DNA of 64,000 nt from Paramicrobacterium humi (GTDB lineage Bacteria; Actinomycetota; Actinomycetes; Actinomycetales; Microbacteriaceae). Under the pieces are notes generated by a model. The model was not told the origin of the DNA, made no database searches, and was given only the letters and a program-made list of their open reading frames with translations. Shown here in pieces: positions 40,312 through 60,634 of this stretch. The stretch covers positions 1,984,001 through 2,048,000 of the forward strand of contig NZ_FNRY01000001.1 in NCBI RefSeq assembly GCF_900105715.1, in the 5' to 3' direction. Within the stretch, counting starts at the first letter, position 1. Every line of letters starts with the position of its first letter. Position numbers and translations under genes: made by a program.

Positions 40312-40317
40312 TACAAT
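40312..40317 (+). promoter_or_regulatory. -10 hexamer of the SRP RNA gene
   Basis: TACAAT lies about 7 nt before the presumed 5' end of the 4.5S RNA; it is among the best -10 matches in the window. Confidence 0.6.
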
Positions 40318-40323
40318 GGATGG

Positions 40324-40420
40324 TGGCTCCTCGCGTGGCGCCATCCAGGCCAACTCCCCCAGGACGGAAACGTAGCAAGGGTAACCGGGCTCTGGCGGGT
40401 GCGCGAGGGGTCCTTTTCTT
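40324..40420 (+). ncRNA. ffs: Signal recognition particle 4.5S RNA
   Basis: The apical domain is unmistakable: CCCAGGACGGAAACGTAGCA (GGAA tetraloop and conserved A-C motif for Ffh binding). The 5' arm CTCCTCGCG pairs with the 3' arm CGCGAGGGG, and TCCTTTTCTTTG follows as a U-rich terminator. Length about 97 nt, the short bacterial type. Ends are approximate. Confidence 0.93.
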
Positions 40421-40449
40421 TGTCCGCTCGTCGCGGCCCACGCAGAGAC

Positions 40450-40481
40450 GCGGGCGGCCCGACCGAAGCCGAACCGCCCGC
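40450..40481. terminator. Hairpin ending the nar operon
   Basis: GCGGGCGG (40450-40457) and CCGCCCGC (40474-40481) form a perfect 8-bp stem right after the narI stop codon and after the SRP RNA, so it can serve both converging units. Confidence 0.65.
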
Positions 40482-40495
40482 AAAGAGGCAGTGCG

Positions 40496-46500: not shown

Positions 46501-47347
46501 GTGTCACGGGGACGTTCGAACCCCACATCATGAGGTACGAGGAGTTGAACCAGTCGGCAGACTCGGGCACGTCGGTCTGGTCGCCGAACACCTGCGGGCT
46601 CGCGACGGGGAGGTCCGCGTACCAGTCGTAGAACGACTGCATGGTTCCGCCGAGCAGGTTGATGAATCGCGCGCCGACGCCGTGGGACACCATCGACATC
46701 GCGGGGATCGGGGAGAAGCCGGCGACGCGGTCGGGCCCGTACTCCTTCACGGTGTGCACGTGCGCGGCGGCGACGATCTCGATCGCCTCGCTCCAGTCGG
46801 CGCGGACGAGGCCGCCCTTGCCGCGTGCCGACTTGTACGTGCGCGCACGCTCGGGGTCGGAGGTGATATCCGCCCACGCCTCGACGGGGTCGCCGAGCCG
46901 AGCCTTCGCCTCGCGGTACATCTGCAGCAGCGACGCGCGGATGTAGGGGTAGCGCACGCGCGTGGGGGAGTAGGTGTACCAGCTGAACGCGGCGCCGCGG
47001 GGGCAGCCGCGCGGCTCGTACTCGGGAGAGTCCGGCCCGACGGTCGGATAGTCGGTCTGCTGCGTCTCCCACGTGATGATGCCGTCCTTGACGTACACCT
47101 TCCACGAGCACGAGCCCGTGCAGTTGACGCCGTGGGTGGAGCGCACGACCTTGTCGTGCGACCAGCGGTCGCGGTAGAAGGAGTCGCCCGCGCGGCCGCC
47201 CTTGAGGTAGACGGAGCGCAAGTCATCGGACACTTCGCCCGGCCGCAGGTACCGGCCGAGACTCACGAGGGAGTCGGCGAGCGGCCCGTCCGTTCGTGCA
47301 CCCGAGTCGGTGCGGCTGAGCGTCGTGCCCCGATTACGTTTCGCCAT
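43580..47347 (-). CDS. narG: Respiratory nitrate reductase alpha subunit (Mo-bisMGD)
   Basis: A 1255-residue catalytic subunit that reduces nitrate to nitrite in the cytoplasm. N-terminal THGVNCTGSCSW holds the His/Cys ligands of the FS0 [4Fe-4S] cluster. YDWYADLPVASP carries the Asp that binds molybdenum (Asp222 in E. coli NarG). GAGTNHWFHSDT and NGGGWAHYVGQEK are cofactor-contact segments. There is no twin-arginine signal, as expected for the membrane-bound Nar type. ATG 47347 follows AAAGGACA. Needs the Mo-cofactor genes encoded just downstream in the window. Confidence 0.97.
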   Translation of the reverse strand: MAKRNRGTTLSRTDSGARTDGPLADSLVSLGRYLRPGEVSDDLRSVYLKGGRAGDSFYRDRWSHDKVVRSTHGVNCTGSCSWKVYVKDGIITWETQQTDYPTVGPDSPEYEPRGCPRGAAFSWYTYSPTRVRYPYIRASLLQMYREAKARLGDPVEAWADITSDPERARTYKSARGKGGLVRADWSEAIEIVAAAHVHTVKEYGPDRVAGFSPIPAMSMVSHGVGARFINLLGGTMQSFYDWYADLPVASPQVFGDQTDVPESADWFNSSYLMMWGSNVPVTRTPDAHFMTEARYRGQKVITVSPDYADNSKFADEWLAPHPGTDGALAMAMGHVILREFLVDRRTPYFAEYLKRYADAPYLVALDEREDAFVPGKFVTASDLGGADAATANPEFKTVLLDKDGTPVVPNGSLGHRFAKEDEGKWNLDLGDVDPLLSILDSPSWGGQTAAIDLPRFDVTPEAGEEQEGGTGVIRRGVPVMTVAGKTVTTVFDLLLAQYGVGRDGLPGTWPTGYDDPTSPGTPAWQEEITSVPAEQVARIGREFADNAERSGGRSMIIMGAGTNHWFHSDTIYRTFLTLTTITGCQGVNGGGWAHYVGQEKVRPLTGYNQYQLAADWVRPARNMIGTAFWYLATDQWRYDGLPADQLASPLARGMFEGRTTADCLVESAKRGWMPSYPTFDKSPLNIVDEARAKGVEPQQYVIDSLTDGSLRFACEDPDSPENFPRVLNVWRSNLLGSSGKGNEYFLKHLLGTDAAVRAPESEGDRRPSTMTWHEEAPEGKLDLLVTSDFRMTSTTLFSDVVLPTATWYEKYDLSSTDMHPFVHSFNPAIQPPWQTRSDFDIFQTIAKRFSELAATHLGVREDLIAAPLTHDTADAMATPHGTVEDDLPLVPGVTMPKLIVVERDYPNLANQMTALGPLTAKAGMVTKGITYDPTPEIERLARSNGVVAAGPYAGQVRLDTDVRACELILALSGTTNGRLAVQGFKSLEKHTGQSMAELAAGNEDNRVTFPDVQSRPVPVITSPEWSGSEHGGRRYTAFAINVEHKKPWHTLTGRMHFYLDHDWMLELGESMPIYRPPLDLYRLYGDAKVGSTKPTGAAGSEGHAEVAVRYLTPHSKWSIHSEYQDNLFMLSLSRGGPTIWMSPQDAAKIGVRDNEWIEAYNRNGVVVARANVSHRMPEGTVYMYHAKDRTVDVPKAETSGLRGGIHNSLTRVLLKPSHLIGGYGQLSFAFNYLGPTGNQRDEVTVIRRRSQEVEY

Positions 47348-47365
47348 CCCACTGTCCTTTCGATG

Positions 47366-47371
47366 TTCTAC
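47366..47371. promoter_or_regulatory. Half-site TTCTAC in the narK-narG gap
   Basis: TTCTAC stands alone; the expected GTAGAA five bases later is replaced by CGAACT. It may be a weak site or chance. Confidence 0.25.
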
Positions 47372-47400
47372 TTCCGCGAACTCTTCATCCTCGCGAATTC

Positions 47401-48729
47401 TCAGCTCGGCTTCTCCGCGTTCGGCCGTGTGTAATACCACCAGGCCAGCCACGAGCACACGGCGCACCAGATCGCGCACACGATGAAGAACGCGAGCGGG
47501 CTCATGACCGAGAGCGCCATTCCGACCAGGAACGGGCCGAAAGCGCCGATGGATGCCGTCCAGCCGATCGTGCCGCCCGCCTGCACCTTCGTGAAGATCA
47601 TCGGCATCTGTTTGAAGGTTCCGGCGTTGGCGAAGCCGGAGAAGAAGAAGATGATCATCATCCCGGTGAGGAAGCCCCAGAACTGGTTCACGCTCGTCGG
47701 AGTGAGGAAGAAGGCGGTGACGACGGTTCCGAGGGTCATGCCGAGACCGCCGATGAAGGTGAAGATCGCGCCGCCCCACTTGTCGCACAGGGGACCGCAC
47801 GCGGCGCGGATGCCGGCACCGAGCAGCGGGCCGATCCAGGCCCACGCGAGCGGGTTCGGGGCGTTCTCGAAGCCGCCGTAGACGTTGCGGATGATGAGGC
47901 CCGTCTGCGCGGCGAGGCCGGAGAAGGCTCCGAAGGACATGAGGTAGAGGGCCGACATGATCCACGTGTGCTTGAGGCGGAAGATGTCGAGCTGCTGTCG
48001 GAAGTTCGCGGTCACGGGCACGCGACGCAGGAAGACGATCGCGGCGACCGCGGCGAGCAGCACCCAGGGGATGAGGACGAGGCCGCCGTTGTGCAGCCAG
48101 ACGAGCGTGCCGTCGGTCTGCGACTGCGGCGTGAGCGCGGCGGTGCCGAGGAGGCCGAACCCGACGACCCACGGCACGAGCAGCTGCACGACGCCGATGC
48201 CGAAGTTGCCGATGCCGGCCTGCAGGCCGAGCGCGGTGCCCGAGAGCCGCTTCGGGAAGAAGTAGCTCGTGGAGGCCATGAGGCCGCTGAAGCTGCCGCC
48301 GCCGACGCCCGCGCTGAACGAGAGCGTCATGAGGAACCAGAACGGAATCGTGGGGTCGCGCACCGCGAACGTCCAGCCGAGCATGGGCAGCACGAGCAGC
48401 AGCGCCGACAGTGTCACGAGCGTGCGCGTGCCGAGGATCGGCGGCAGGAACATGAACACGAGGCGGATGAGCCCGCCCGCGAGACCGGGAAGCGCGACGA
48501 GCCAGTACAACTGCTGGTCGGTGAGGTCGTACCCGATGTCGTTGAGCCGCGGCGCGATGGCGCTCACGAGATACCACGTCGCGAACGCGAGGATCATCGT
48601 GTACGTCGTGATCCACAGCGTGCGCCACGCGAGCTTGCTGTCCCAGGTCTCCGGGTTCTCCGGGTTCCAGTTCGACAGGTCGGATTTCAGGCCAGCGGAA
48701 ACTCCCCCGATGTCGGCCTTTGCGTCCAC
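47401..48729 (-). CDS. narK: Nitrate/nitrite transporter (MFS, NNP family)
   Basis: A 442-residue transporter with twelve helices. The nitrate signature in helix 5 is AGVGGGSFSGLMAS and its helix-11 partner is FSGFANAGTFKQMPMIF. The start is GTG at 48729 behind AAGGGAGG. First gene of narKGHJI; 53 nt separate it from narG. The region upstream holds two copies of TTCTAC-N5-GTAGAA. It imports nitrate and exports nitrite. Confidence 0.95.
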   Translation of the reverse strand: MDAKADIGGVSAGLKSDLSNWNPENPETWDSKLAWRTLWITTYTMILAFATWYLVSAIAPRLNDIGYDLTDQQLYWLVALPGLAGGLIRLVFMFLPPILGTRTLVTLSALLLVLPMLGWTFAVRDPTIPFWFLMTLSFSAGVGGGSFSGLMASTSYFFPKRLSGTALGLQAGIGNFGIGVVQLLVPWVVGFGLLGTAALTPQSQTDGTLVWLHNGGLVLIPWVLLAAVAAIVFLRRVPVTANFRQQLDIFRLKHTWIMSALYLMSFGAFSGLAAQTGLIIRNVYGGFENAPNPLAWAWIGPLLGAGIRAACGPLCDKWGGAIFTFIGGLGMTLGTVVTAFFLTPTSVNQFWGFLTGMMIIFFFSGFANAGTFKQMPMIFTKVQAGGTIGWTASIGAFGPFLVGMALSVMSPLAFFIVCAIWCAVCSWLAWWYYTRPNAEKPS

Positions 48730-48873
48730 AGCGCCTCCCTTGACGGTATACGCCGAGCCCGACCGTCCCTCCCGATCGGGCTGCCTTGTCGGGAGCCTAG
48801 CGCACTACCAGTGGGGCAGGACAGGCTAACTCGGCGTGGCCCCGACTCGTATTCGAGGCCTCGTTACGCTAAT

Positions 48874-48890
48874 TTCTACAGCTCGTAGAA
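48874..48890. promoter_or_regulatory. Palindrome TTCTAC-N5-GTAGAA, copy 1
   Basis: TTCTAC-AGCTC-GTAGAA lies in the 255-nt gap between divergent narK and mogA, about 145 nt from the narK start. Same arms and spacing as copies at 48939 and 61696. Likely binding site of a dimeric regulator; which one is not known. Confidence 0.7.
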
Positions 48891-48938
48891 CGCTTTCGAG
48901 GGGGCGCGCGACCGTGTTTAATCGGGAATCCTCCCGTT

Positions 48939-48955
48939 TTCTACGAGTCGTAGAA
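48939..48955. promoter_or_regulatory. Palindrome TTCTAC-N5-GTAGAA, copy 2
   Basis: TTTCTACGAGTCGTAGAAA is a perfect 19-nt palindrome around one central G. It covers the expected -35 position of the mogA promoter (-10 TACACT at 48973), so binding would repress mogA or place an activator next to polymerase. Confidence 0.75.
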
Positions 48956-48972
48956 ATCTCGCCGCCATCGCC

Positions 48973-48978
48973 TACACT
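48973..48978 (+). promoter_or_regulatory. -10 hexamer of mogA (leaderless)
   Basis: TACACT ends 6 nt before the mogA ATG and no ribosome site is present, so the transcript probably starts at the ATG. Confidence 0.5.
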
Positions 48979-48984
48979 GTCGGT

Positions 48985-49470
48985 ATGAGCCGCCCAACGG
49001 ACCAGGCCGCCGTCATCACCGTCTCCGACCGCGCGGCGGCCGGAACCTACGCAGACGCCTCGGGTCCGCTCGCCGCGGAGCTGCTCGGCGCCGCCGGCTG
49101 GACGACGAGCGTCACCGTCGTGCCCGACGAGCAGGACGCCATCGCGGGCGGCATCCGCTCGGCCATCGACGCCGGCGCCCGGCTCGTCGTGACGACCGGT
49201 GGCACGGGCATCGGGGCGCGCGACGTGACGCCCGAGGCCACGGCGCCGCTCCTGCGCCTGCGCCTGCCCGGCATCGCCGAGCAGATCCGTCGCGTCGGCG
49301 CCGAGAAGCTGCCGCAGGCTCTGCTCTCGCGCGGCATCGCCGGCATCTGCGGCGACGCGCTCATCGTCAACCTCGCCGGCTCGCCCGGCGCCGTCCGCGA
49401 CGGCATTCCGGTCGTCCTCGGGGTCGCCGCCCACGTCGTCGCGCAGCTGGACGGTGGTGACCACTCGTGA
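48985..49470 (+). CDS. mogA: Molybdopterin adenylyltransferase (MogA/MoaB family)
   Basis: A 161-residue cytoplasmic enzyme that adenylates molybdopterin before metal insertion. AAVITVSDRAAAGTYADASGP, LVVTTGGTGIGARDVTPEA and the late NLAGSPGAVRDGI match the family and its MPT-binding loop. Single-domain form. Its stop overlaps the moaE start (GTGA). Confidence 0.93.
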   Translation: MSRPTDQAAVITVSDRAAAGTYADASGPLAAELLGAAGWTTSVTVVPDEQDAIAGGIRSAIDAGARLVVTTGGTGIGARDVTPEATAPLLRLRLPGIAEQIRRVGAEKLPQALLSRGIAGICGDALIVNLAGSPGAVRDGIPVVLGVAAHVVAQLDGGDHS

Positions 49471-49901
49471 TCGCCTTCGCGCGCGTCAGCGACGCCGACC
49501 TCGATCCCGCCGCGCACCTCGATGCTGTCGCGGCGCCCGAGCAGGGTGCGACGGCCCTGTTCGTGGGGACCGTGCGGGACAACGATCCGGATGCCGCCGG
49601 CCGCGTCGTGCGACTCGACTACTCCGCGCACCCCGACGCCGAGCGGATCCTCGCCGAGATCGCGGCCGGACTCGACGGACCGGGACTGCGCATCGCGGTG
49701 AGCCATCGGGTCGGATCGCTCGACGTGGGTGGCCTTGCCATCGTCGCCGCGGTATCGTCGGTGCACCGGGCTGATGCCTTCGACGTGAGCCGCGCGCTCG
49801 TGGAACGCGTGAAGGCGGAGCTCCCGGTGTGGAAGAAGCAGGTCGAGAGCGACGGGTCCTCGTCGTGGGTCGGCCTGGGGAGGCTGGCTCGTGAGCACTG
49901 A
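49467..49901 (+). CDS. moaE: Molybdopterin synthase catalytic subunit
   Basis: A 144-residue large subunit of MPT synthase, which adds two sulfurs from MoaD thiocarboxylate to cPMP. GATALFVGTVRDNDPDA, SHRVGSLDVGG and the active-site Lys in ELPVWKKQ are present. GTG start, coupled to mogA by a 4-nt overlap; its own stop lies inside moaA. Confidence 0.94.
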   Translation: MIAFARVSDADLDPAAHLDAVAAPEQGATALFVGTVRDNDPDAAGRVVRLDYSAHPDAERILAEIAAGLDGPGLRIAVSHRVGSLDVGGLAIVAAVSSVHRADAFDVSRALVERVKAELPVWKKQVESDGSSSWVGLGRLAREH

Positions 49902-50904
49902 TCCGTTCGAGGGCCCGCTCGTCGACCGGTTCGGCCGCGTGCACCGCGACCTGCGCATCTCGCTCACCGACAAGTGCAACCTGCGCTGCACGTACTGCAT
50001 GCCCGCTGAGGGCGTTCCGTGGCTCGCGAAGCAGAACCTGCTCACGACCGACGAGATCGAACGCGTCGCCCGCGTGCTCGCTCGCCTCGGCATCGTCGAG
50101 ACCCGGCTCACGGGCGGCGAACCGCTCTTGCGGCCCGACGTCGTCGACGTCGTGCGCCGCCTCGCGCGAATCGAGGGGGAGCGCGGCCCGCTGCGGGTCT
50201 CGATGACGACGAACGGCATCCGCCTCGACCGGCTCATGGACGACCTCGTCGACGCCGGCCTCGAGCGGCTCAACATCAGCCTCGACACCGTGCGGCCCGA
50301 CCGCTTCGCCGAGCTCACCCGCCGCGACAAGATCGAGGACGTCTTCGCGGGAATCGAGGCCGCTCGCGCCTCCGGTCTTCGCCCGCTCAAGCTCAACACG
50401 GTCGCGATGCGCGATGTCAACGACGACGAGTTCTGCGACCTGCTGCGCTTCGCGAAGGCTCACGACGCGGAGCTGCGCTTCATCGAGCAGATGCCGCTCG
50501 ACGCGGGCCACATCTGGTCGCGCGTGAAGATGGTGCAGGGTGAGGAGATCCTCGAGAAGCTCTCGGCCGAGTTCACGCTCGAGGAAGTGGGCGAGCGCGG
50601 CTCGAGCCCCGCGCAGCTGTTCCTCGTCGACGGCGGTCCGACGACGGTGGGCGTCATCGCCTCGGTCACCGCGCCGTTCTGCGGAGCCTGCGACCGCGTT
50701 CGGCTTACGGCCGACGGTCAGCTGCGCAATTGCCTGTTCGCCCGCGAGGAGTCCGACCTGCTCGGGCTGCTGCGCGCCGGCGGAAGCGACGAGGACATCG
50801 CCCGGATGCTGCGGCAGAACATCGAGGGCAAGCGCGCCGGGCACGGCATCGACGATCCCGGGTTCCTGCAGCCCGACCGCCCGATGTCGGCGATCGGCGG
50901 CTGA
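49891..50904 (+). CDS. moaA: GTP 3',8-cyclase, radical SAM
   Basis: A 337-residue enzyme that makes the first Moco intermediate from GTP with MoaC. The radical-SAM cluster is C29-NLR-C33-TY-C36. The C-terminal second cluster CGACDRVRLTADGQLRNC is complete, and the protein ends in the Gly-Gly tail (SAIGG) that MoaA needs for catalysis. GTG start overlaps moaE by 11 nt. Confidence 0.96.
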   Translation: MSTDPFEGPLVDRFGRVHRDLRISLTDKCNLRCTYCMPAEGVPWLAKQNLLTTDEIERVARVLARLGIVETRLTGGEPLLRPDVVDVVRRLARIEGERGPLRVSMTTNGIRLDRLMDDLVDAGLERLNISLDTVRPDRFAELTRRDKIEDVFAGIEAARASGLRPLKLNTVAMRDVNDDEFCDLLRFAKAHDAELRFIEQMPLDAGHIWSRVKMVQGEEILEKLSAEFTLEEVGERGSSPAQLFLVDGGPTTVGVIASVTAPFCGACDRVRLTADGQLRNCLFAREESDLLGLLRAGGSDEDIARMLRQNIEGKRAGHGIDDPGFLQPDRPMSAIGG

Positions 50905-51007
50905 GTCATGCGGCGTAATGTGACGGCGCGGTGCGCTAGCCAAGCCGTGTGACGCGGCATCCGTAACACTCGACCGATGCGGGCCGGCACAGTGTGAGGA
51001 TCGGGAC

Positions 51008-52036
51008 ATGACTTCCTCACTCGACTCGCTTCCCATCCTTGACCTGTCCCGACTCGACGCCGGCCCCGACGAGGCCGACGCGTTCCGCGCCGAACTGCGT
51101 CAGGTGACGCACGACGTCGGCTTCTTCTACCTCGTCGGGCACGGCGTGCCGCAGGACCTCATCGACGAGGTGCTCGCGGTCTCGCGCCGCTTCTTCGACC
51201 TGCCCGAGGAGCAGAAGCTCGCGATCGAGAACACGGGCAGCGCTCAGTTCCGCGGCTACACGCGCGTCGGCGGCGAGCTGACCCACGGCGACGTCGACTG
51301 GCGTGAGCAGATCGATATCGGCGTCGAACGGGATGCCGTGACGGCCGAGGGCGCCGCCGACTACTGGCGGCTCGAGGGGCCGAACCTGTGGCCCGAGCAG
51401 CTGCCCGAGCTGCAGCAGGTCGCGACGCGCTGGATGAACGAGCTCGGCGCCGTCGCGCTTCGCCTGCTGCGCACGTGGGCGCAAGCGCTCGGCGCGCCCG
51501 ACGACGTGTTCGACGAGGCGTTCGCCGAGGACCCGTTCTCGCTGCTCAAGATCGTGCGCTACCCCGGCGAGTCGAACCCCGAGCCCAAGCAGGGCGTCGG
51601 CGCCCACCGCGACGGCGGCGTGCTCACGCTCCTGCTCGTGGAGCCCGGGAAGGGCGGGCTGCAGGTCGAGCACGAGGGGGAGTGGATCGAGGCGCCCTCC
51701 GTGTCCGGCGCGTTCGTCGTCAACATCGGCGAGATGTTCGAGCTCGCGACGGGCGGCTACCTCAAGGCGACGCTGCACCGCGTGATCTCGCCGATCATCG
51801 GCACCGATCGCATCTCGATCCCGTTCTTCTTCAACCCGAAGCTCGACACCGTCATGCCGCAGCTTCCGCTCAGCCCCGAGCTCGCCGCGGAGGCGCGCGG
51901 ACTCTCGGTCGATCCGACGAACAGCCCCATCCTCGACACGTACGGCGACAACGCGCTGCGCTACCGGCTGCGCGCCCACCCGAACGTGGCCGAGGTGCAC
52001 CACGCCGACCTGCTCGCGGCACGCGCCGCGCAGTAG
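51008..52036 (+). CDS. 2-oxoglutarate/Fe(II) dioxygenase, isopenicillin-N-synthase-like
   Basis: A 342-residue non-heme iron oxygenase. Iron ligands are His and Asp in GVGAHRDGGVLTLLL and a distal His in KATLHRVISP; the co-substrate Arg-x-Ser is in GTDRISIPFFFNP. The N-terminal FFYLVGHGVPQDLIDEVLAVSRRFF is the DIOX_N domain. The family includes plant-like hydroxylases and ACC-oxidase relatives; the substrate cannot be told. It sits between two Moco gene groups but has no known part in that pathway. A start at 51008 follows GTGAGGATCGGGAC. Confidence 0.9.
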   Translation: MTSSLDSLPILDLSRLDAGPDEADAFRAELRQVTHDVGFFYLVGHGVPQDLIDEVLAVSRRFFDLPEEQKLAIENTGSAQFRGYTRVGGELTHGDVDWREQIDIGVERDAVTAEGAADYWRLEGPNLWPEQLPELQQVATRWMNELGAVALRLLRTWAQALGAPDDVFDEAFAEDPFSLLKIVRYPGESNPEPKQGVGAHRDGGVLTLLLVEPGKGGLQVEHEGEWIEAPSVSGAFVVNIGEMFELATGGYLKATLHRVISPIIGTDRISIPFFFNPKLDTVMPQLPLSPELAAEARGLSVDPTNSPILDTYGDNALRYRLRAHPNVAEVHHADLLAARAAQ

Positions 52037-52054
52037 AAGGGCGCGCGCGCCGCG

Positions 52055-52291
52055 CTACCCGCCGGCGAAGGGCGGCAGCACGTCGACCGTCGCGGCATCC
52101 GGAACCGTGTCGTCGTCGGTGAGACGGCTGCCGTCGACGAGAAGCGAGCAGCGGCCGAGCACGCGCGCGAACTCGGCGCCGTGCTCGGCCGTGAGCGCCG
52201 TGCGCAGCGCGCCGAGCGTGATCGGGCCGGCGAGGCTGCCTTCCTCGCGCCCGGCCGCGTCGGCGGCGCCGGCGAAGTAGCGGATCCTCAC
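52055..52291 (-). CDS. moaD: Molybdopterin synthase sulfur carrier subunit
   Basis: A 78-residue ubiquitin-like protein (MRIRYFAGAADAAGREE...) ending in PPFAGG. The Gly-Gly tail is activated by MoeB and carries the sulfur given to MoaE. Overlaps the upstream DUF6457-like gene by 4 nt. Confidence 0.92.
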   Translation of the reverse strand: MRIRYFAGAADAAGREEGSLAGPITLGALRTALTAEHGAEFARVLGRCSLLVDGSRLTDDDTVPDAATVDVLPPFAGG

Positions 52292-52530
52292 GACTGCCTC
52301 CGCTCGATGAGCTCGCGGGTCGTCGCGGCGGCGGCATCCGGTGTCATGCCCTTCGCGACGGCGAGGCCGACGAGGTAGGTCGTGAGCGGACCGGCGGGGC
52401 GCGTGATGCCGTGCGCGGCGTCGCGCGTGAGATCGAGCAGCAGGCCCGTCGGCACGTCGGCGGGGTCGAGCCCGAGCGCGGGAGCCAGCTCGGCGACCCA
52501 GGCGTCGAGGTCCTCAGGTGTGTCAGGCAT
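52288..52530 (-). CDS. Small DUF6457-like protein linked to mobA
   Basis: An 80-residue helical protein (LDAWVAELAPALGLDPADVP, LLLDLTRDAAHGITRPAGPLTTYLVGLAVA). Proteins of this kind are found next to, or fused with, molybdopterin guanylyltransferases in actinobacteria. Its start lies inside the end of mobA (8-nt overlap), and it overlaps moaD. Function unknown. Confidence 0.78.
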   Translation of the reverse strand: MPDTPEDLDAWVAELAPALGLDPADVPTGLLLDLTRDAAHGITRPAGPLTTYLVGLAVAKGMTPDAAAATTRELIERRQS

Positions 52531-53179
52531 GGGGTTCCCTTCTCGTGCTTCGATAGTGGTCGATGGCCGCCCAGGTATCAAGGTCGACGGCGGCGCCGTG
52601 CGCGTCGGGCACCAGGACGGTGCGGATGCCGCCGACGAGGCGCCTCATCGACGCGTCGTGCGGGGTGGGCAGCGCCGCGAGCGCCGTGCGCAGCGCGGCC
52701 GTGCGGTAGCGGCCCGCGAGCCACTGCGGCCGGCCGTCCGCGTCGGCGAGGATCACGGCGTCGGCCTCGTCGGGGATCGGCACGGGGCGAAGCAGCGCGA
52801 CGATGTCGGCCGCGCGCGGCAGGTCGCACGCGAGCAGCCACGTCTCTTCCGCCGCCGCGTTTTTCTGCAGATCGTCGCGGCGCGCCGTGTCGAGGGCACC
52901 ACGTGCGGCGTGTCGCGGCGTTCTGCAGAAATTAGCCCCGAGCGCGCCAAGAGCGGCGGCGAGCCCGGCAACGGGGCCGCCGTACGGCGGATCCTCGCGC
53001 ACGACCGTGACGCCCGGTCGGGCGAGGTGCGCCGGGCCCGCGACGACGACGGGGGAGCAGTCGGCGACAGCCGCGAGCACGTGGTCGAGCAGCATCCGCC
53101 CGTCGACCTCGACGGAGGCCTTGTCGGCCCCGCCGAGCCGGGACGCGCGCCCGCCGCCGAGCACGATCGCCGCGGTCAT
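52523..53179 (-). CDS. mobA: Molybdenum cofactor guanylyltransferase with in-frame palindromic insertion
   Basis: A 218-residue nucleotidyltransferase that attaches GMP to Mo-molybdopterin to make the bis-MGD needed by Nar[26 protein letters not shown] is the GTP-binding start and [11 protein letters not shown] the metal-binding strand. Between [11 protein letters not shown] and the latter strand lie about 28 extra residues ([20 protein letters not shown] and following) that family members lack; these are encoded by a palindromic repeat (52858-52938). The insertion is at a surface loop position before the LACDLP strand, so the enzyme may stay active. Overlaps moaC by 4 nt. Confidence 0.9.
52858..52938. 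repeat. Palindromic repeat inside mobA, copy 1
   Basis: TTTCTGCAGA at 52862-52871 is mirrored by TCTGCAGAAA at 52922-52931, and the inner arms keep pairing through CGTCGCGGCGCGCCG with G-T wobbles. The right arm is 28 of 30 identical to the copy at 58537-58566. The frame of mobA stays open through it. Confidence 0.75.
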
Positions 53180-53658
53180 GGCCGCGCCCAGTCGCCGCTC
53201 TTGCCGCCCGTCTTGCGCAGCAGCTCGACGCGTTCGATCGACACGGACTTGTCGAGGCCCTTGACCATGTCGATCACGGTGAGCGCCGCGACGCTCGCGG
53301 CCGTGAGAGCCTCCATCTCGACGCCCGTGCGATCGGCCGTGCGCACGGTGGCCTCGATCGCGACCCCGTCGTCGACGATCTCGAGGTCGACGGCCGCGCC
53401 GTGCACGCCGATCACGTGCGCGAGGGGCAGCAGCTCGGGCGTGCGCTTGGCGGCCTGGATGCCTGCGATGCGCGCGACCGCGAGCACGTCGCCCTTCGGC
53501 ACGCTGCCGCCGCGCAGCGCCGCGATGATGTGCGGCGCCGCCCGCACGAACGCCCGCGCGGTCGCGCTGCGCACGGTCGGAGTCTTCTCGGTCACGTCGA
53601 CCATGCGCGCGTTGCCGGCGGCGTCGAGGTGGGTGAAGGGCTGGGCGGCATCCGTCAT
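53176..53658 (-). CDS. moaC: Cyclic pyranopterin monophosphate synthase
   Basis: A 160-residue enzyme that converts the MoaA product into c[48 protein letters not shown] and the catalytic [22 protein letters not shown] with KTGGKSG at the end are all conserved. Overlaps moeA by 4 nt. Confidence 0.95.
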
Positions 53659-54863
53659 GAGAGCACCATCACCGTCACGGCATCGCCCTCGGCGACGCGC
53701 TCGATGTCGGCGGGCACGATCGCGAAGCCCTCGGCGTCGGCGAGCGAGCTCACGAGGTGCGAGCCGCTCCCGCCCGCGGACGCCGGCTGCGCGATCTGGT
53801 CGTTGAATACGACGGGCAGCACTTGCGTGCGGTTCGGCGGCGTCGTCCAGCTTGCGCCGGCCGTGCGCGTGATGAGCGGCCGGTCGATGTCGGCGTGCCC
53901 GGCCATGGCGCGCAGCGCGGGCCGCACGAACATCTCGAACGACACGGCGACGCTCACGGGATTCCCGGGCAGGCAGAACAGCAGCGCCCCCGACGCGGCC
54001 GTGCCGAAGCCCTGCGGTTTGCCCGGCTGCATCGCGACGGCGTCGAAGTCGACGGATGCCAGGGGGCCCAGCACCGCCTTCACGACGTCGAACGCGCCCA
54101 CGCTCGCGCCGCCCGAGAGCACGACGGCGTCGGAGTCGGCCGTCGCCGTCTCGAGCACGCGACGCAGCTCGTCCTCATCGTCGGGCACGGTGAGCGTGTG
54201 CGTGACGAGCGCTCCCGCGTCGCGCAGCGCGGCGCCCAGGAGCACGGAGTTCGATTCGGGGATCTGCCCGCGCCCCGGCGTGGCCGAGGGGGCGACGAGC
54301 TCGGAGCCGGTGGAGATCACGGCCACGCGCGGCCGGCGGACGACCGCGACCGTGTCGTGGCCGGCGGAGGCGATCGCCGACAGCTGCCATGCGCCGAGCT
54401 TCGTGCCCGCCTCGACCGTGACCGTGCCGGCGGGGGAGTCCTCGGCCGCGTGGCGGATGTGCGCGCCTGGCTTCGGCTCGGCCGTCACAATGATCCACTC
54501 GGGCGGGGCCGTGCTGATCGCGGTGCCGAGGTCGGTGGCCTCAAGCGGCACGATCGCGTCGGCGTCGGAGGGGACGGGAGCGCCCGTCATGATGCGCGCG
54601 GCCTCGCCGGCGCCGAGCGCGGGATCGAGCGCGGAGCCGGCGGGCACATCGGCGACGACCCGCAGGCGGGCGCCCTCGGCGGCATCCGCTCGCCTGACGG
54701 CGTAGCCGTCCATGGCCGAGTTGTCGAACAGCGGGACGGCGAATCGGCTCACGACCTGCTCGGCGAGCACGAGGCCGAGCGCGTCGGCGAGGGGGACGCG
54801 CTCGGTCGGCAGCTCGGTCGCGGCGGCGAGGATGCGGTCGCGGTGCTGCTGGATGGGGATCAT
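53655..54863 (-). CDS. moeA: Molybdopterin molybdotransferase
   Basis: A 402-residue enzyme that inserts molybdate into adenylated molybdopterin. [13 protein letters not shown] near residue 45, [38 protein letters not shown] and [19 protein letters not shown] follow the standard order of the four MoeA domains. ATG 54863 overlaps the moeB stop by 4 nt. An in-frame start 21 nt upstream is possible. Confidence 0.95.
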
Positions 54864-55966
54864 GCCCGGCTCCTCGACGACCATTCGGCGTAGCCGCCGT
54901 CGAGCACGCGGATGTCGGCGCCCGGATGCGCGGCGGCGAGGGCGCGGGCGGCGGCGCGGGCGCGCGGTCCCTCTTGGCAGAACACCACGAGCGTGCCGTC
55001 GACGGTGACGGATGCCGGGTCGCCCAGCACCCCGGACAGGGGAAGCGACACGGCGCCGGGGATGCTGCCGCGCGCGAACTCGTGCGGTTCGCGCACGTCG
55101 AGAAGCGTCGCGCCGGAAAGCGCGTCGAGCTCGTCGACCCCGATGCGAGACACGGCGGGCCTGCCGGGCGAGGCGGGAGCGGCATCCGGAACCCGTCTCG
55201 TCGTGGGGGCGAGAGGCACCTCCCGCATGCGCATGCTCAGGGCGTCGAGCACGAGCATGCGGCCGAGCAGGCTGTCGCCGGCGCCGCAGATGAGCTTGAC
55301 GGCCTCGGCCGCGAGGATGCCGCCGAGCTGGCCGCAGAGGGCGCCGAGCACGCCGGCCTCCGCACAGGAGGGGACCTCGCCGGCAGCGGGCGGTGTGGGG
55401 AACACGTCGCGCAGCGTGACGGCGGGGCCGGCCGGCGGTTTCGACCAGAACACGGTGGCCTGGGCGTCGAAGCGCAGCACGGATCCCCAGACGAGCGGGA
55501 CGCCGATCGCGGCGCACGCGTCGGCGACGGCGTAGCGGGTGTCGAAGCTGTCGCTGCCGTCGATGATGAGGTCGTAGCCGCCGAGCATCGTCTCGGCGTT
55601 GGCTGGCGTGAGCCGCTCGCGGTGCTCGATCACGCGGGTGTGCGGGGAGAGCTCGCGGATGCGGCGCGCGGCGACCGTCGCCTTCGGCTGCCCGACGTCG
55701 GCGGTGCCGAAGATGACCTGCCGCTGCAGGTTGGTGATGTCGACGGTGTCGTCGTCGACGATGCCGATCGTGCCGACGCCGGCCGACGCGAGATAGAGCA
55801 GCACGGGGGAGCCGAGGCCTCCCGCGCCGAGAACGCCGACCTTCGCGGCGAACAGGCGGCGCTGCGCGAGCTCGCCGAGCTCGGGCAGCTTGAGCTGCCG
55901 GGCGGCGCGCACGAGCTCGTCGGCGGGAAGCTCCGCGACGGGGTCCACGAGGGGAGGAAGAGCCAT
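54860..55966 (-). CDS. moeB: MoeB/ThiF adenylyltransferase fused to rhodanese domain
   Basis: A 368-residue sulfur-carrier activator. The ThiF domain has GAGGLGSPVLLYLASAGVGTIGIVDDD (ATP loop) and SDSFDTRYAVADAC; the C-terminal rhodanese domain (LLDVREPHEFARGSIPGAVSLPL) bears the sulfur-accepting Cys in VVFCQEGPRA. The CxxC pairs that bind zinc in E. coli MoeB are not seen. It adenylates MoaD and probably supplies its sulfur itself. First gene of moeB-moeA-moaC-mobA-DUF-moaD. Confidence 0.93.
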   Translation of the reverse strand: MALPPLVDPVAELPADELVRAARQLKLPELGELAQRRLFAAKVGVLGAGGLGSPVLLYLASAGVGTIGIVDDDTVDITNLQRQVIFGTADVGQPKATVAARRIRELSPHTRVIEHRERLTPANAETMLGGYDLIIDGSDSFDTRYAVADACAAIGVPLVWGSVLRFDAQATVFWSKPPAGPAVTLRDVFPTPPAAGEVPSCAEAGVLGALCGQLGGILAAEAVKLICGAGDSLLGRMLVLDALSMRMREVPLAPTTRRVPDAAPASPGRPAVSRIGVDELDALSGATLLDVREPHEFARGSIPGAVSLPLSGVLGDPASVTVDGTLVVFCQEGPRARAAARALAAAHPGADIRVLDGGYAEWSSRSRA

Positions 55967-56038
55967 GCTCCCACGCTAGCGCGCAGCGCGCTTCCGTGGG
56001 TCCCTCGTCGTCGTGACTATTGGACGGCCGCGGCCTCC

Positions 56039-57025
56039 TCAGCGCTCGCTGTCCAACTCCGCCATGGCGGGCGCCGGGTAGCGCTCGCCCTTCGCGGCTC
56101 CCTGTGGCACCAGCGCGTCGATTCGTGCGAGCTCGTCATCGTCGAGCGTGACGTCGCAGCTGCCGATCATCGATTCGATCTGATCGATCCGCCGCGCGCC
56201 GACGATCGGCACGATCGACTCGTCTTGCGCCGCGACCCACGCTATGGCGAGCTGCGCGAGCGTTGCGCCGTGGGCGTCGGCGATCTCGCGGAGCGGCGCG
56301 ACGAGCGCCCGATTGTGTTCGAGGTTCGCGCCTTGGAGACGAGGGAACAGGGCCCGGGCGCCTCCGGTCGTCCCTCCGCCGATGATGCCCTTCGCGAGCA
56401 CGCTGTAGGCGGTGATCCCGATGCCGAGCTCGCGGCAGGTGTCGAGGATGCCGTTGCGCTCGATGTCGCGGCTGAGGAACGAGTACTCGATCTGCACGTC
56501 GCTGATCGGGGCGACGGCCGCTGCGCGGCGGATCGTGTCCGCGCCGACTTCGCTCAGGCCGATGTGGCGGACGTACCCGCCCTCGACGAGCTCCTGCACG
56601 GCGCCGACGGTGTCCTCGATCGGCACGTGCGGGTCGAGCCGTGCCGGTCGGTAGATGTCGACGTGGTCGGTGCCGAGTCGCTGCAGCGAGTAGGTCAGCG
56701 AGCTCTTCACCGCTTGCGGACGACCGTCGAAGCCGGAGGGTATGCCGGTCGGCGTCACGTGGGCGCCGAACTTCACCGAGAGGACGGCGTCGTCGCGGTG
56801 CCGCTCGCGGAGCGCACCGGCGATGAGCATCTCGTTGTGGCCCGCCGCATAGAAGTCGGCAGTGTCGATGAGCGTGCCCCCGGCGTCGAGATACGCGTGG
56901 ATGACCCGCACGCTCGCCTCGTCGTCCACGGGACCGTACGCCCCTGAGAGGCTCATGCCGCCGAGAGCGGGCGAAGTGACGTGGGGGCCGTTCGCGCCGA
57001 GCCGGCGCCTGTTGAGTTTCGTCAT
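56039..57025 (-). CDS. Aldo/keto reductase
   Basis: A 328-residue NADPH-dependent reductase. Catalytic Asp and Tyr lie in LIDTADFYAAG, Lys in VLSVKFGAH, and the usual His near VDIYRPARLDPHVP is replaced by Arg in that segment (YRPARLD instead of YxxHRxD), which is seen in some AKR13-like members. LGIGITAYSVLAKGIIGG and GARRIDQIESMIGS bind the cofactor. It is divergent from the XRE regulator, 101 nt away, and is probably controlled by it. Confidence 0.9.
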   Translation of the reverse strand: MTKLNRRRLGANGPHVTSPALGGMSLSGAYGPVDDEASVRVIHAYLDAGGTLIDTADFYAAGHNEMLIAGALRERHRDDAVLSVKFGAHVTPTGIPSGFDGRPQAVKSSLTYSLQRLGTDHVDIYRPARLDPHVPIEDTVGAVQELVEGGYVRHIGLSEVGADTIRRAAAVAPISDVQIEYSFLSRDIERNGILDTCRELGIGITAYSVLAKGIIGGGTTGGARALFPRLQGANLEHNRALVAPLREIADAHGATLAQLAIAWVAAQDESIVPIVGARRIDQIESMIGSCDVTLDDDELARIDALVPQGAAKGERYPAPAMAELDSER

Positions 57026-57126
57026 GGCATCCAGCTTCGGCCGCCAGCGCGATCGGCGGCAGGCACGATCTATCCAGGGAGGCGCCGTCCCTGGATACCG
57101 GGACGGCCGAGGCGCAGGATGGGTAC

Positions 57127-58023
57127 GTGTTCGATCGCACAGGCCTTGCCGACTTCCTCCGCCGACGCCGCGAGACACTGCGGCCGGTCGATGCCGGCAT
57201 CCCCGTGGGAAACCGGCGACGCACTCCCGGGCTGCGCCGCGAGGAGGTGGCGGCCCTCGCCGGTATCTCCACCGACTACTACTCCCGGCTCGAGCAGGCC
57301 CGCGGCTCTACGCCATCGGCATCCGTCATCGCCTCACTTGCTCGAGCGCTCCAGTGCGATCTCGACCAACGCGACCATCTCTTTCACCTCGCCGGCGTGG
57401 CAGCGCCTCCTCGCCGCGCCGGCGGCCACGTCCGCCCGGGCCTCATCGCCTTGGCCAATCGCCTCGTCGACATCCCCGTCATGATCACCACCGACCTGGG
57501 TGAGCTCGTCTGGCGCAACGCGCTTGCCCAAGCCCTCATGCGCGACTTTCCCGAAGGGTCCGAGGGGCCGCGGAACGTGATCTGGCGGTGGTTCGCTGAG
57601 CCGATGTCGCGGCCGATGCCCGAAGCGGAGTGGGCGCGGATCTCCGCCTCGCACGTGAGTGACTTGAGAGCGGCGCACGCGCGCCGTTCCGCGGATGCCG
57701 AGGTGACGAGACTCGTCAACGACCTGGTAGCCCGTAGTGCCGAGTTCCGCGAGCTCTGGAGCCGGCACGACGTCGGGGTTCGGCGGTCGGACATCAAGAC
57801 CGTGGTTCACCCGGAGGTCGGACTCGTCCAGCTTCGCTGCGAGGTGCTGCTCACTCCGGCCGAAGACGTGGAACTGATCGCGTTCTTCCCGCTCGAGGGA
57901 ACCGACGCCGACGAGAAGCTCCAGCTACTGCGGGTCATCGGCAGCCAGCAGTTCTCGTCAGCGGGTGGAGCTCTTCCTGCCCCCGCACGAGAAGAGGGCT
58001 CCGACCACGATCCTGGCCGCTGA
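57127..58023 (+). CDS. XRE-family regulator with MmyB-like ligand domain
   Basis: A 298-residue regulator. Helix-turn-helix RTPGLRREEVAALAGISTDYYSRLEQARG is near residues 32-60; the rest (VMITTDLGELVWRNALAQALM, PEVGLVQLRCEVLLTPAEDVELIAFFP) is the MmyB-like domain that binds a small, probably fatty, ligand. GTG start. Members of this group usually control the divergent oxidoreductase, here the aldo/keto reductase. Confidence 0.9.
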   Translation: MFDRTGLADFLRRRRETLRPVDAGIPVGNRRRTPGLRREEVAALAGISTDYYSRLEQARGSTPSASVIASLARALQCDLDQRDHLFHLAGVAAPPRRAGGHVRPGLIALANRLVDIPVMITTDLGELVWRNALAQALMRDFPEGSEGPRNVIWRWFAEPMSRPMPEAEWARISASHVSDLRAAHARRSADAEVTRLVNDLVARSAEFRELWSRHDVGVRRSDIKTVVHPEVGLVQLRCEVLLTPAEDVELIAFFPLEGTDADEKLQLLRVIGSQQFSSAGGALPAPAREEGSDHDPGR

Positions 58024-58069
58024 CGCGACCGATCTCGACGCGCAGCAGCCGACGAGGAAGAATGGGCGC

Positions 58070-58482
58070 ATGAGCGATGTCGCGAAAGTCACCTCATCCG
58101 TCGTGTTCGTCACCGAGCTGGATCGGACGGTCGAGTTCTATTCCGCGGTCTTCGGGTGCGAGGTCGCCCTCAACGAAGACTCGGGCGCCCTGCTTCTCGC
58201 TCGGGAGGATTCCAGCTTTACATCATCGCCAAGGGAGAGAGAGCGGCGCATCCCTCCGGCGACATCGGAACGCAGTACTTGATGTGGGGGACCGACACTA
58301 GTGAGGCGTTGGGCCGGTTCACGAAGGAGCTTTCGTCCCGCAACTGCTACATCGACACCCACACGAGCGGCGACGTGACATTCGTCGAGGGGCGCGACCC
58401 GGACGACATCCGCATCGTCATCGCCTATCCGAGCCCGAGCGAACGGCCGCGCTCGATCCTGGACAGCCGCTTCTACAGCTGA
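58070..58482 (+). pseudogene. VOC/glyoxalase-family protein, apparent frameshift
   Basis: Frame one runs from the ATG at 58070 (SSVVFVTELDRTVEFYSAVFGCEVALNEDSGALLLARED) and then leaves the family pattern. The pattern resumes in another frame at about 58212 with GFQLYIIAKGERAAHPSG and runs to YCY-like IDTHTSGDVTFVEGRDPDDI and the end at 58482. One missing base in CGGGAGGATT (58203-58212) explains it. A restored protein would be about 138 residues, the usual one-domain VOC size. Either a recent pseudogene or a base-calling error. Confidence 0.72.
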
Positions 58483-58513
58483 TTCGGCGAAGCGCCCTCA
58501 GTTCGGCCAGTAG

Positions 58514-58570
58514 CACGGCGCGTCGAGCGTGGCAGACGGCGTGTCGACGCGTTCTGCAGAAATTAGGGAG
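58514..58570. repeat. Palindromic repeat, copy 2 (intergenic)
   Basis: Contains CGGCGTGTCG then GCGTTCTGCAGAAATTAG (28 of 30 bases as in the mobA copy, same strand) and the flanking GTCGAG. Its left arm is more decayed than in the mobA copy. The remaining bases of the 186-nt gap show no gene. Confidence 0.7.
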
Positions 58571-58668
58571 AGGGGCACACCGTCAGCCGACGCAGTATGA
58601 CGACCCGGAGTCGCAAATGCGGAATAAAGGCCATGTCTGTTCCGCAGATGCGGTGCTAGCGTGGCCGC

Positions 58669-59070
58669 ATGACCACGTTTCGCATCAGCGAGGCCGCACC
58701 CCTGCTCGGTGTGAGTGACGACACGCTCCGCCGCTGGATCGACCAGGGCCAGCTCCCGTCGGCGAAGGACGCCGTGGGCCGCACGGTGGTCGACGGCGCC
58801 GACCTCGCCGCGCACTTGACGAGCGCGGCATCCGGTCCCGATGACCCCGTGTCCCGTGCGTCGAGCGCCCGCAACCGTTTCGTCGGCATCGTCACGAACG
58901 TCATCAGCGACACCGTCATGGCGCAAGTGGAGATGCAGTGCGGTCCGCACCGCGTCGTCTCGCTCATGTCCAGCGAGGCGGTGCGCGAGCTCGGCCTCGA
59001 GGTCGGTTCCCTCGCGACCGCGATCGTCAAGGCCACGACCGTGATCGTCGAAACGCCGGAGAGGAAGTGA
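58669..59070 (+). CDS. Molybdate-sensing regulator: MerR-like HTH plus TOBE (Mop) domain
   Basis: A 133-residue protein. The first 55 residues (TFRISEAAPLLGVSDDTLRRWIDQGQLP) form an excisionase/MerR-type DNA-binding helix-turn-helix; the last 65 (SARNRFVGIVTNVISDTVMAQVEMQCGPHRVVSLMSSEAV) form a molybdate-binding TOBE/Mop domain. Proteins of this build sit in front of modABC and regulate it. The stop overlaps the modA start by 4 nt (GTGA). TAGCGT 6-7 nt before the ATG suggests a leaderless transcript. Confidence 0.9.
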   Translation: MTTFRISEAAPLLGVSDDTLRRWIDQGQLPSAKDAVGRTVVDGADLAAHLTSAASGPDDPVSRASSARNRFVGIVTNVISDTVMAQVEMQCGPHRVVSLMSSEAVRELGLEVGSLATAIVKATTVIVETPERK

Positions 59071-59849
59071 TCGCCGTGCGTCGATTCCCGAAGGCTCTCG
59101 CGGTGCTCGCCGCGGCGGCTCTGCTCACGGGGTGCGCCGGCTCGGCGCCCGCCGGCGAACGGAGCGCAGCGGCATCCGACCCCCTCATCATCTTCGCGGC
59201 CGCGTCGCTGCAGGGCTCCTTCGACGAGCTCGCGGCCGAGTTCACGGCTGCGCATCCCGAGTACCCTGTCGCCCCGATCACGTATGACGGCTCGCAGGCC
59301 CTCGCGACGCAGATCGTGGACGGCGCCGACGTCGACGTGATCGCGTTCGCGAACGAGCCGAGCCTGACGCCGGTGACGGACGCCGGCGCCGTTGACGACA
59401 GCACCATCTTCGCCACGAACACGCTGCAGATCGCCGTCGCGCCGGGGAACCCGAAGGGGATCACGGACCTGTCCGACCTCGCGAACTCCGATCTCACGGT
59501 CGTGCTGTGCGCCGCGGAGGTGCCGTGCGGCACCGCCTCGCACACGCTGCTCGATGACGCGGGCGTCTCCGTGTCGCCCGCGAGCGAGGAGACGAACGTC
59601 ACGAGCGTCGTGACGCGCGTGGAGAACGGCGAGGCCGACGCGGGGCTCGTGTACGCGACCGACGTCGCCGCATCCGACGGCAAGCTCGACGGCGTGACGC
59701 CGGCGAACGCCGACAAGGCCGTCAACCGGTACCCCATCGCCGTGTCGAAGAACGCGCCGAGCCCGACGGCGGCGAAGGCCTTCGTCGACTTCGTGCTCTC
59801 GGACGCCGGACAGGGTGTGCTGAAGAAGTACGGATTCGGGCGGCCGTGA
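59067..59849 (+). CDS. modA: Molybdate ABC importer, binding lipoprotein
   Basis: A 260-residue lipoprotein with lipobox LTGC (Cys near 24). IIFAAASLQGSFDELAAEFTAAHP is the ModA start with the oxyanion-binding Ser/Ala loop; ITYDGSQALATQIVDGADVDVIAFAN and AGLVYATDVAA are further conserved parts. GTG start at 59067 behind GGAGAGGA; the GTG at 59076 is an alternative. Confidence 0.94.
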   Translation: MIAVRRFPKALAVLAAAALLTGCAGSAPAGERSAAASDPLIIFAAASLQGSFDELAAEFTAAHPEYPVAPITYDGSQALATQIVDGADVDVIAFANEPSLTPVTDAGAVDDSTIFATNTLQIAVAPGNPKGITDLSDLANSDLTVVLCAAEVPCGTASHTLLDDAGVSVSPASEETNVTSVVTRVENGEADAGLVYATDVAASDGKLDGVTPANADKAVNRYPIAVSKNAPSPTAAKAFVDFVLSDAGQGVLKKYGFGRP

Positions 59850-60634
59850 CGCTGCCGCGCGGCCTCTACCTCCCGGCGATCGGCGCGCTCGCGCTCCTCG
59901 TGCTGCCGATCGTGGGGCTCGTGTCGCGCGTGCACTGGGCGACGCTGTGGCAAGACCTGTTCTCGGTCTCGTCGCTCACGGCCCTGTGGCTGTCGATCTC
60001 GACGGCGGCGTGCGCGACGGCCGTCTGCGTCGTGCTCGGGATGCCGCTCGCGGTCGTGATCGCCCGGTCCTCCGCGCGCACGGCGGCGGTGCTGCGCACG
60101 ATCGTTCTCGTGCCGCTCGTGCTGCCGCCCATGGTCGGCGGTCTCGCGCTGCTCGCCCTGCTCGGCCGGTCGGGGCTCGTCGGCAAGCCGATCTTCGAGG
60201 CGACGGGTTTCAGCCTGCCGTACACGACCGCGGCCGTCGTCGTCGCGCAGGCGTTCGTGGCCATGCCGTTCCTCGTGATCACGCTCGAGGGGACGCTGCG
60301 CACCTCCGGCGTGTCGCACGAGCAGCGCGCCGCGACGCTCGGAGCGGGACGCTGGCGGGTGCTCACGCGCGTGACGCTGCCGCTCATTCTCCCAGGGCTC
60401 GCCGCGGGCACCGTGCTGTGCTTCGCCCGCGCGCTCGGCGAGTTCGGCGCGACGGCGCTGTTCGCGGGCAATGCCGCGGGCGTGACCCGCACGATGCCCC
60501 TCGCCATCTACACCGCCTTCAACGGCGTCGGCGTGACGCAGGACTCCGCCGTCGCGCTCTCCCTCCTGCTTCTCGTGTGCGCGGCGATCATCGTGGGCGG
60601 CATGCGCTCGTGGCGAGCGGACGCCGTGCGATGA
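59846..60634 (+). CDS. modB: Molybdate ABC importer, permease
   Basis: A 262-residue permease with five or six helices. The ATPase-docking loop is EQRAATLGAGRWRVLTRVTLPLILPG, followed by FARALGEFGATALFAGN, the diagnostic ModB block. GTG start overlaps modA (GTGA). Confidence 0.95.
   Translation: MTLPRGLYLPAIGALALLVLPIVGLVSRVHWATLWQDLFSVSSLTALWLSISTAACATAVCVVLGMPLAVVIARSSARTAAVLRTIVLVPLVLPPMVGGLALLALLGRSGLVGKPIFEATGFSLPYTTAAVVVAQAFVAMPFLVITLEGTLRTSGVSHEQRAATLGAGRWRVLTRVTLPLILPGLAAGTVLCFARALGEFGATALFAGNAAGVTRTMPLAIYTAFNGVGVTQDSAVALSLLLLVCAAIIVGGMRSWRADAVR

What the first reader, a model, noticed from the sequence alone, without database searches (positions are those of the whole stretch)
52858..52938. 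Palindromic repeat inserted in frame in mobA
An ~80-bp palindrome interrupts mobA between the second and third conserved blocks and adds about 28 residues without breaking the frame. The same element occurs at 58514-58570 in a non-coding gap (28/30 identity in the right arm). In-frame palindromic insertions that survive inside proteins are well known in Rickettsia (RPE elements) but I know of no such description for this actinobacterial group.
Basis: partly seen in the sequence, partly recalled or inferred. Interest (0 to 1): 0.72.

Follow-up and report, generated by a model that had tools for sequence, protein, structure and literature searches.

The report
Repeated palindromic DNA site at gene ends
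The palindrome inside this molybdenum-cofactor gene is one of 13 copies of a fixed-geometry DNA site that this bacterium and many relatives keep just downstream of genes, probably as docking places for an unknown protein, and the copy inside the gene is a tolerated exception.

Summary
The palindrome is real and is not confined to two copies. It belongs to a family of about 80-bp sites, 13 in this genome (some with one decayed arm), with one layout: outer block (13 bp) - 8 bp - CGACACGCCG - 18/19 bp - CGGCGTGTCG - 8 bp - outer block reversed. Twelve of the 13 are intergenic; mobA holds the only intragenic one. The inner pair recurs in 57 of 299 family genomes (31 of 85 genera; reversed control 2 of 299) and in 14 of 274 sampled genomes of other families of the order. 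The outer block is a lineage-specific "dialect": TTTCTGCA here, ATTCGGAA in congeners, GGATCCGCAG or GGATCAGGACG elsewhere. Both arms share one dialect in 75 of 75 elements of two genomes. At 12 orthologous positions outer blocks are 94% identical, spacers 46-58%, which points to selection on the blocks. Sites hug stop codons, often between convergent genes. No RAYT transposase was found in 15 element-bearing genomes. Best reading: REPIN-like binding sites of an unknown protein. In mobA the site sits in a hypervariable loop, predicted disordered, where three of four congeners carry other extra residues: an incidental insertion, not a Rickettsia-type system.

The parts
52523..53179 (-). mobA, molybdenum cofactor guanylyltransferase-like, 218 aa, frame intact
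   Evidence: weak matches to MobA families, TIGR02665 E 1.3e-11 but 44.9 bits, below its cut-off of 151.85; MobA structures, best E 3.5e-7
52857..52936 (-). 80-bp four-block palindromic element inside mobA
52924..52936 (-). outer block, perfect dialect copy GCTAATTTCTGCA (read on the mobA strand)
52906..52915 (-). inner block CGACACGCCG, perfect
52878..52887 (+). inner block of the other arm, degenerate (CGGCGCGCCG, 8 of 10)
52857..52869 (+). outer block of the other arm, degenerate (TTTCTGCA part kept)
58537..58567 (-). second copy: one intact half-site (outer block, 8 bp, inner block); the other arm is not recognisable

Best explanation
The palindrome is one member of a family of dispersed DNA recognition sites that work like REPINs/BIMEs. 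A still unknown sequence-specific protein, probably as a dimer or larger array, would bind two half-sites. Each half-site is a 13-bp outer block, 8 bp of loosely constrained spacer and the 10-bp inner block CGACACGCCG, and the halves face each other across 18-19 bp of free sequence. The inner contact is conserved across families of the order; the outer contact drifts by lineage together with its reader. Shown: block geometry, matched arms, divergent spacers, block conservation at orthologous places, position right behind stop codons. Inferred: that a protein reads the site; that its use is at gene ends (stopping, insulating or relieving supercoiling between convergent transcription units); that new copies arise by rare copying. 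The mobA copy would be such a rare gain that landed in frame in a disordered loop and does nothing for MobA.
For: 13 sites in this genome; apart from the half-site the core is 70-71 bp. Inner pair in 57 of 299 family genomes, reversed control 2; 26 of the 31 sites in the 30 loci L086-L115 kept from that search have 17-19 bp between the inner blocks though 10-40 was allowed. Arms of 83 elements are strongly complementary at offsets 8-20 from the inner block. Arms of the same dialect in 35 of 35 (G160) and 40 of 40 (G099) elements (the stricter script mis-scored 7 of G099 because of a 1-nt shift). 12 orthologous pairs: outer blocks 293/312 identical, 8-bp spacers 111/192, centres 103/224 against 36% for unrelated centres. 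Gaps with an element are convergent in 37 of 72 cases, other gaps of the same loci in 13 of 124, p 5e-10; 93 of 102 facing stop codons lie within 30 nt of the element edge (my own gene calls). An extra outer block exactly 19 bp out, on exactly one side, in 33 of 35 G160 elements and 16 of 18 dialect-A elements of G099, but 0 of 22 dialect-C ones.
Against: No reader protein was found; no gene family recurs beside the sites examined (largest cluster 3 of 282 neighbour proteins). Inner blocks are exact by construction of the searches, so their conservation was not measured independently, and orthologous pairs were only sought where both genomes keep them. Across genomes the three spacer positions next to the outer block also show some arm complementarity (z 3.6-4.4; at most 2.4 within G160 and G099 alone), so the spacer is not wholly free. 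Centres of different copies are on average slightly more alike than shuffled ones in all three genomes tested. 4 of 4 congeners lack TTTCTGCA half-sites at up to 1 mismatch, so sites turn over faster in this genus than in g16. Only 14 of 274 genomes of other families have the inner pair, and in 7 of these 14 the first site has clearly matched outer blocks at the expected offset (no null computed).
Confidence: 0.5

Rival explanations
1. Selfish miniature element: a REPIN- or MITE-like unit mobilised by a non-RAYT transposase that recognises the two-block ends; position behind genes reflects where insertion is tolerated.
For: Copy in mobA absent from 4 of 4 congeners; patchy copy number 0-46; dialects never mixed within an element in two genomes; REPIN doublets likewise have conserved ends and spacers constrained mainly in length and hairpin capacity (PMC3116915, passages); slight excess likeness between centres of different copies.
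Against: No Y1 transposase (PF01797) in 15 of 15 element-bearing genomes searched, while 1 of 11 element-free ones has it (one of the 15, G268, has only pairs with 26-27 bp between the blocks); best centre pairs are only 67%, 79% and 67% identical in G160, G099 and G000 (shuffled best 67%, 70%, 58%); blocks conserved at 12 orthologous places while spacers diverged, which transposition need alone does not explain; target duplication not established.
Confidence: 0.32
2. RNA-level element: a 3'-UTR hairpin that stabilises or terminates transcripts from both sides.
For: Behind stop codons and between convergent genes; both block pairs could pair as stems; across genomes the outer arms covary; in this genome 2 of 8 outer pairs change on both sides, one sequence each.
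Against: No both-sided change in the inner stem in this genome (0 of 9 pairs; 77.8% of cells paired); centres show no clear excess pairing (z at most 2.9); within a genome the sequence of the blocks, not only pairing, is conserved; the far side is AAATTAG rather than a T run.
Confidence: 0.12
3. RPE-like element whose role is to add peptides to proteins.
For: In-frame reading through mobA.
Against: 1 of 13 copies intragenic here; most of the insert is predicted disordered (residues 83-97 and 99-107, pLDDT under 50); dialect ends carry TAA/TAG in some frames.
Confidence: 0.03

Closest known systems
REPINs / REP doublets with RAYT (Pseudomonas; PMC3116915, abstract and passages read)
   Same: Short inverted doublets in extragenic DNA, constrained spacer length, several subfamilies per genome that are rarely mixed.
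   Different: No RAYT (Y1_Tnp) in the 15 element-bearing genomes searched; each half has two blocks with an 8-bp spacer; centre not clearly a compensated hairpin; an inner block shared across families with a lineage-specific outer block; tens rather than hundreds of copies.
CGTC- and GTAG-tagged REPs (PMC3733652, abstract, outline and a word search of the main text)
   Same: Downstream of genes, between convergent or tandem ORFs, some inside genes; [quoted passage not shown]
   Different: Larger unit of about 80-100 bp; no GTAG/CGTC tag seen in the consensus by eye; Actinobacteria, Clavibacter, Leifsonia, Microbacter- and Arthrobacter do not occur in that paper's main text.
Rickettsia palindromic elements (PMC10969869, passages read)
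   Same: Palindromic repeat read in frame inside a conserved enzyme.
   Different: 80 bp against about 150 bp; one intragenic copy of 13. Sequences were not compared.
DNA uptake sequence dialects of Neisseriaceae (PMC3630211, search listing and start of abstract only)
   Same: A recurring genomic word that differs by lineage; co-evolution with its reader and inverted pairs behind genes are recalled.
   Different: Far fewer copies (recalled for DUS); much longer composite site; no test of competence here.

Membership tests
REPIN/RAYT | Inverted doublet with fixed spacing in extragenic DNA | tested here: met
REPIN/RAYT | Subfamilies not mixed within a doublet | tested here: met
   75 of 75 elements in G160 and G099; but in this genome two end variants do mix, in 3 of 13 elements by eye
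REPIN/RAYT | Spacer folds into a hairpin with compensatory changes | tested here: inconclusive
   centre z at most 2.9; spacer positions beside the outer block z up to 4.4 across genomes, 2.4 within g16
REPIN/RAYT | RAYT (Y1 transposase) in the genome | tested here: not met
   0 of 15 element-bearing genomes, 1 of 11 element-free ones; controls ring in 5 of 14
GTAG/CGTC REP | Unpaired GTAG or CGTC tag at one end | tested here: not met
   by inspection of half-sites; no systematic scan
MITE | Shared interior between copies | tested here: not met
   mean identity of centres 0.40-0.43, shuffled 0.36-0.41; best pairs 0.67-0.79, shuffled best 0.58-0.70: at most a slight excess
MITE | Target-site duplication | tested here: inconclusive
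   mobA flanks against congeners too diverged
Rickettsia palindromic element | Mostly in-frame inside ORFs, about 150 bp | tested here: not met
Intrinsic terminator | Stem followed by a T run | tested here: not met
   outer flanks read CTAATTT...AAATTAG, A-rich on the far side, in most copies here; the terminator scan tool was not run
Rfam families | Match to a curated RNA family | tested here: not met
   two weak matches in window 50000-60000, both far below the gathering score and not at the element

The most novel reading that the evidence does not exclude
An order-wide actinobacterial system in which an unknown DNA-binding protein (or array of them) occupies composite sites of 80-100 bp at gene ends, with an inner word frozen across families and an outer word that diversifies by lineage, so that each species speaks its own dialect; a new class of chromosomal boundary or topology site.
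Probability: 0.35. Interest if true: 0.87.

Novelty: new variant of a known kind. Interest (0 to 1): 0.66.

Why it matters
Dispersed palindromes behind genes are common but mostly tied to RAYT transposases or left unexplained. Here the parts that matter can be read off directly, because spacers diverge and blocks do not. Several dialects coexist in one genome, so the reader protein and its specificity changes should be findable by comparison. Genomes with 40 sites and relatives of the same family in which the exact pair is not found make the function testable.

Tried and rejected
Exact-word view (TTCTGCAGAAATTAG): only two exact copies, misleading. Half-site pattern in genome contigs (13 stretches in unrelated taxa) and viral contigs (1): I take these as chance, being about what an 18-base word would give in collections of that size (my own estimate, not a call); only the viral one was read. 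The viral match to the inner pair has no matched outer blocks. G261 half-match at one mismatch: judged chance (own estimate). RAYT idea tested and dropped. Neighbour-gene search for a reader or transposase: nothing recurrent. Clustering of sites on the chromosome: Rayleigh R 0.449, p 0.07, inconclusive. Spacer likeness between mobA and the second copy: among half-sites of this genome 5 pairs of 8-bp spacers agree at 6 or more bases against 7.0 (sd 2.5) by column shuffling, so no sign of recent copying there. Covariance model R1 was built but not used for any search. The organism could not be named; genomes carry handles only, and in a plasmid search of window 40000-60000 the 8 rows shown of 44 were other actinobacteria at about 75%, the named features being nitrate reductase. 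Paper searches on palindromes in Microbacteriaceae, Microbacterium, Clavibacter, Micrococcales and actinobacteria, and on the inner word, gave nothing relevant in their listings; the library lacks most subscription papers.

Full report
What was checked. The window is bases 1984001-2048000 of contig 1 of a 3.36-Mb genome. The palindrome in mobA is there, the frame is open, and its best word TTCTGCAGAAATTAG occurs twice exactly in the window and in the genome. A BLASTN search with the whole insert against the own genome gave 45 alignments at E up to 10. Reading 18 of those places outside the window showed one layout in nine of them and in the two window copies: TTTCTGCA, 8 bases, CGACACGCCG, about 18 bases, then the mirror image. 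The other nine lack it. A search with the half-site at up to 3 mismatches found 21 half-sites against 1 for the reversed control. They add two places (644 and 880 kb), which makes 13; one weak half-site at 2349910 was dropped unexamined. In four of the 13 (149, 644, 1858 and 2042 kb) one arm is decayed or shifted. The outer block is really 13 bp, mostly [G/C]CTAATTTCTGCA or CTATTTTCTGCA, with a second variant GCTTCRTTCTGCA.

Where the copies lie. With a codon-usage gene caller of my own, none of the 11 sites outside the window overlaps a gene. The copy at 58.5 kb is in a gap and keeps only one arm. mobA is the only gene hit.

mobA itself. Against four congeners the insert falls between GPVAG and [11 protein letters not shown]. 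That stretch is 44 residues long here, 19 in G001, 44 in G004, 54 in G002 and 79 in G003, with no TTTCTGCA, CGACACGCC or congener-dialect words in the others. So the element is specific to this genome, but extra residues in this loop are not. AlphaFold2 on a thin alignment (own protein and three congeners) gives mean pLDDT 74.4, with residues 83-97 and 99-107 under 50, between a helix and the strand leading to CDLPR. The insert most likely sits in a floppy surface loop.

Relatives. The half-site at up to 1 mismatch was found in 2 of 398 family genomes, this one and one doubtful single match. Dropping the outer block changed the picture. CGACACGCCG-N10-40-CGGCGTGTCG occurs in 57 of 299 family genomes and 31 of 85 genera, up to 46 copies, reversed control in 2 of 299. 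Of the 31 sites in the 30 loci L086-L115, 26 have 17-19 bases between the blocks; the other 5 have 15, 26, 29, 31 and 35. The tools name no taxa; I believe the family is Microbacteriaceae, but that is recalled, not tested. In a sample of the order, 14 of 274 genomes outside the family also have the pair (N16-21), up to 13 copies. By a simple 13-base comparison 7 of these 14 have clearly matched outer blocks (9 or more of 13, small shifts allowed, no null computed) at the first site. In G571 the outer word GTGGGTGCA touches the inner block directly in 14 of 14 halves of the seven sites fetched (of 13 in that genome).

Dialects. Outer blocks differ by lineage but agree between the arms of an element. 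In 35 elements of G160 (of 40 there), 31 are GGATCCGCAG on both arms and 4 GGATCCGGAG on both; in 40 of G099, 18 are GGATCCGCAG on both and 22 GGATCAGGACG on both. None is mixed (a stricter first script mis-scored seven because of a one-base shift). Complementarity between arms across 83 elements is high at offsets 8-20 from the inner block. In the spacer it is weaker: z 3.6-4.4 at the three positions next to the outer block over all genomes, at most 2.4 within G160 and G099; in the centre z is at most 2.9. Congeners of the window genome use ATTCGGAA; one such site is at the same place in all four.

Selection. Twelve elements of G160 have an orthologous element in G099. Outer blocks are 293/312 identical, 8-bp spacers 111/192, centres 103/224, unrelated centres 36%. 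The inner blocks are exact because the search demanded it, so they give no independent evidence, and places where one genome has lost them were not looked for. Centres of different copies in one genome are only slightly more alike than shuffled ones: means 0.41 against 0.39 in G160, 0.43 against 0.41 in G099, 0.40 against 0.36 in this genome; best pairs 0.67, 0.79 and 0.67 against 0.67, 0.70 and 0.58. On the whole this is what one expects of recognition blocks held by selection at each place, and not of recent copies of one element.

Position. In the G160 and G099 loci the gaps that hold an element are convergent in 37 of 72 cases, other gaps of the same loci in 13 of 124 (Fisher p 5e-10), and 93 of 102 stop codons facing an element lie within 30 nt of its edge. 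A further outer block lies exactly 19 bp outside, on exactly one side, in 33 of 35 G160 elements and 16 of 18 dialect-A elements of G099, in none of 22 dialect-C elements. Those sites are thus about 100 bp and asymmetric.

Mechanism. REPINs are the nearest relatives in behaviour, but the transposase that defines them was not found: Y1_Tnp in 0 of 15 element-bearing genomes (one of them, G268, only with 26-27 bp between the blocks) and in 1 of 11 element-free ones. I therefore favour protein-binding sites at gene ends and rate a selfish element with another transposase second. RNA function is less likely because within a genome the blocks are kept as sequence; pairing in this genome shows no both-sided change in the inner stem and one sequence each at two outer pairs. 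None of this identifies the protein. That, and how a copy came to lie in mobA, remain open.

Literature. I read passages of PMC10969869 and PMC3116915, the abstract and outline of PMC3733652, and found none of the searched actinobacterial names in its main text; PMC3630211 was seen only in the search listing. My searches for palindromic repeats in this group found no description, which does not prove that none exists.

Noticed in passing
window 55967-58668: A 2.7-kb segment (aldo-keto reductase-like, XRE-type regulator-like and VOC-like ORFs, names mostly from reading the sequence) splits a gene pair that is about 155-160 bp apart in all four congeners; the second element copy lies near its right edge.
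   Followed up: partly
L069 and L070 (mobA loops of G002 and G003): The same MobA loop carries a different imperfect palindrome (GTGCCGG..ACGAGG arms, by eye) in two congeners, plus a short tandem repeat in G003: a tolerant insertion spot.
   Followed up: no
G160 and G099 loci L130-L213: Extra outer block exactly 19 bp out on only one side of dialect-A and -B elements; absent in dialect C.
   Followed up: partly
L172, L175, L178, L180: One element is at the same place in all four congeners; part of their flank also lies next to this genome's site at 948 kb, though the other side differs.
   Followed up: partly
L231-L237 (G571): In another family of the order the outer word GTGGGTGCA touches the inner block with no 8-bp spacer, and some centres look palindromic by eye.
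   Followed up: no
G000 contig 1, 149394-2191886: 12 of 13 sites fall between 0.64 and 2.19 Mb of 3.05 Mb; Rayleigh p 0.07, origin position unknown.
   Followed up: partly
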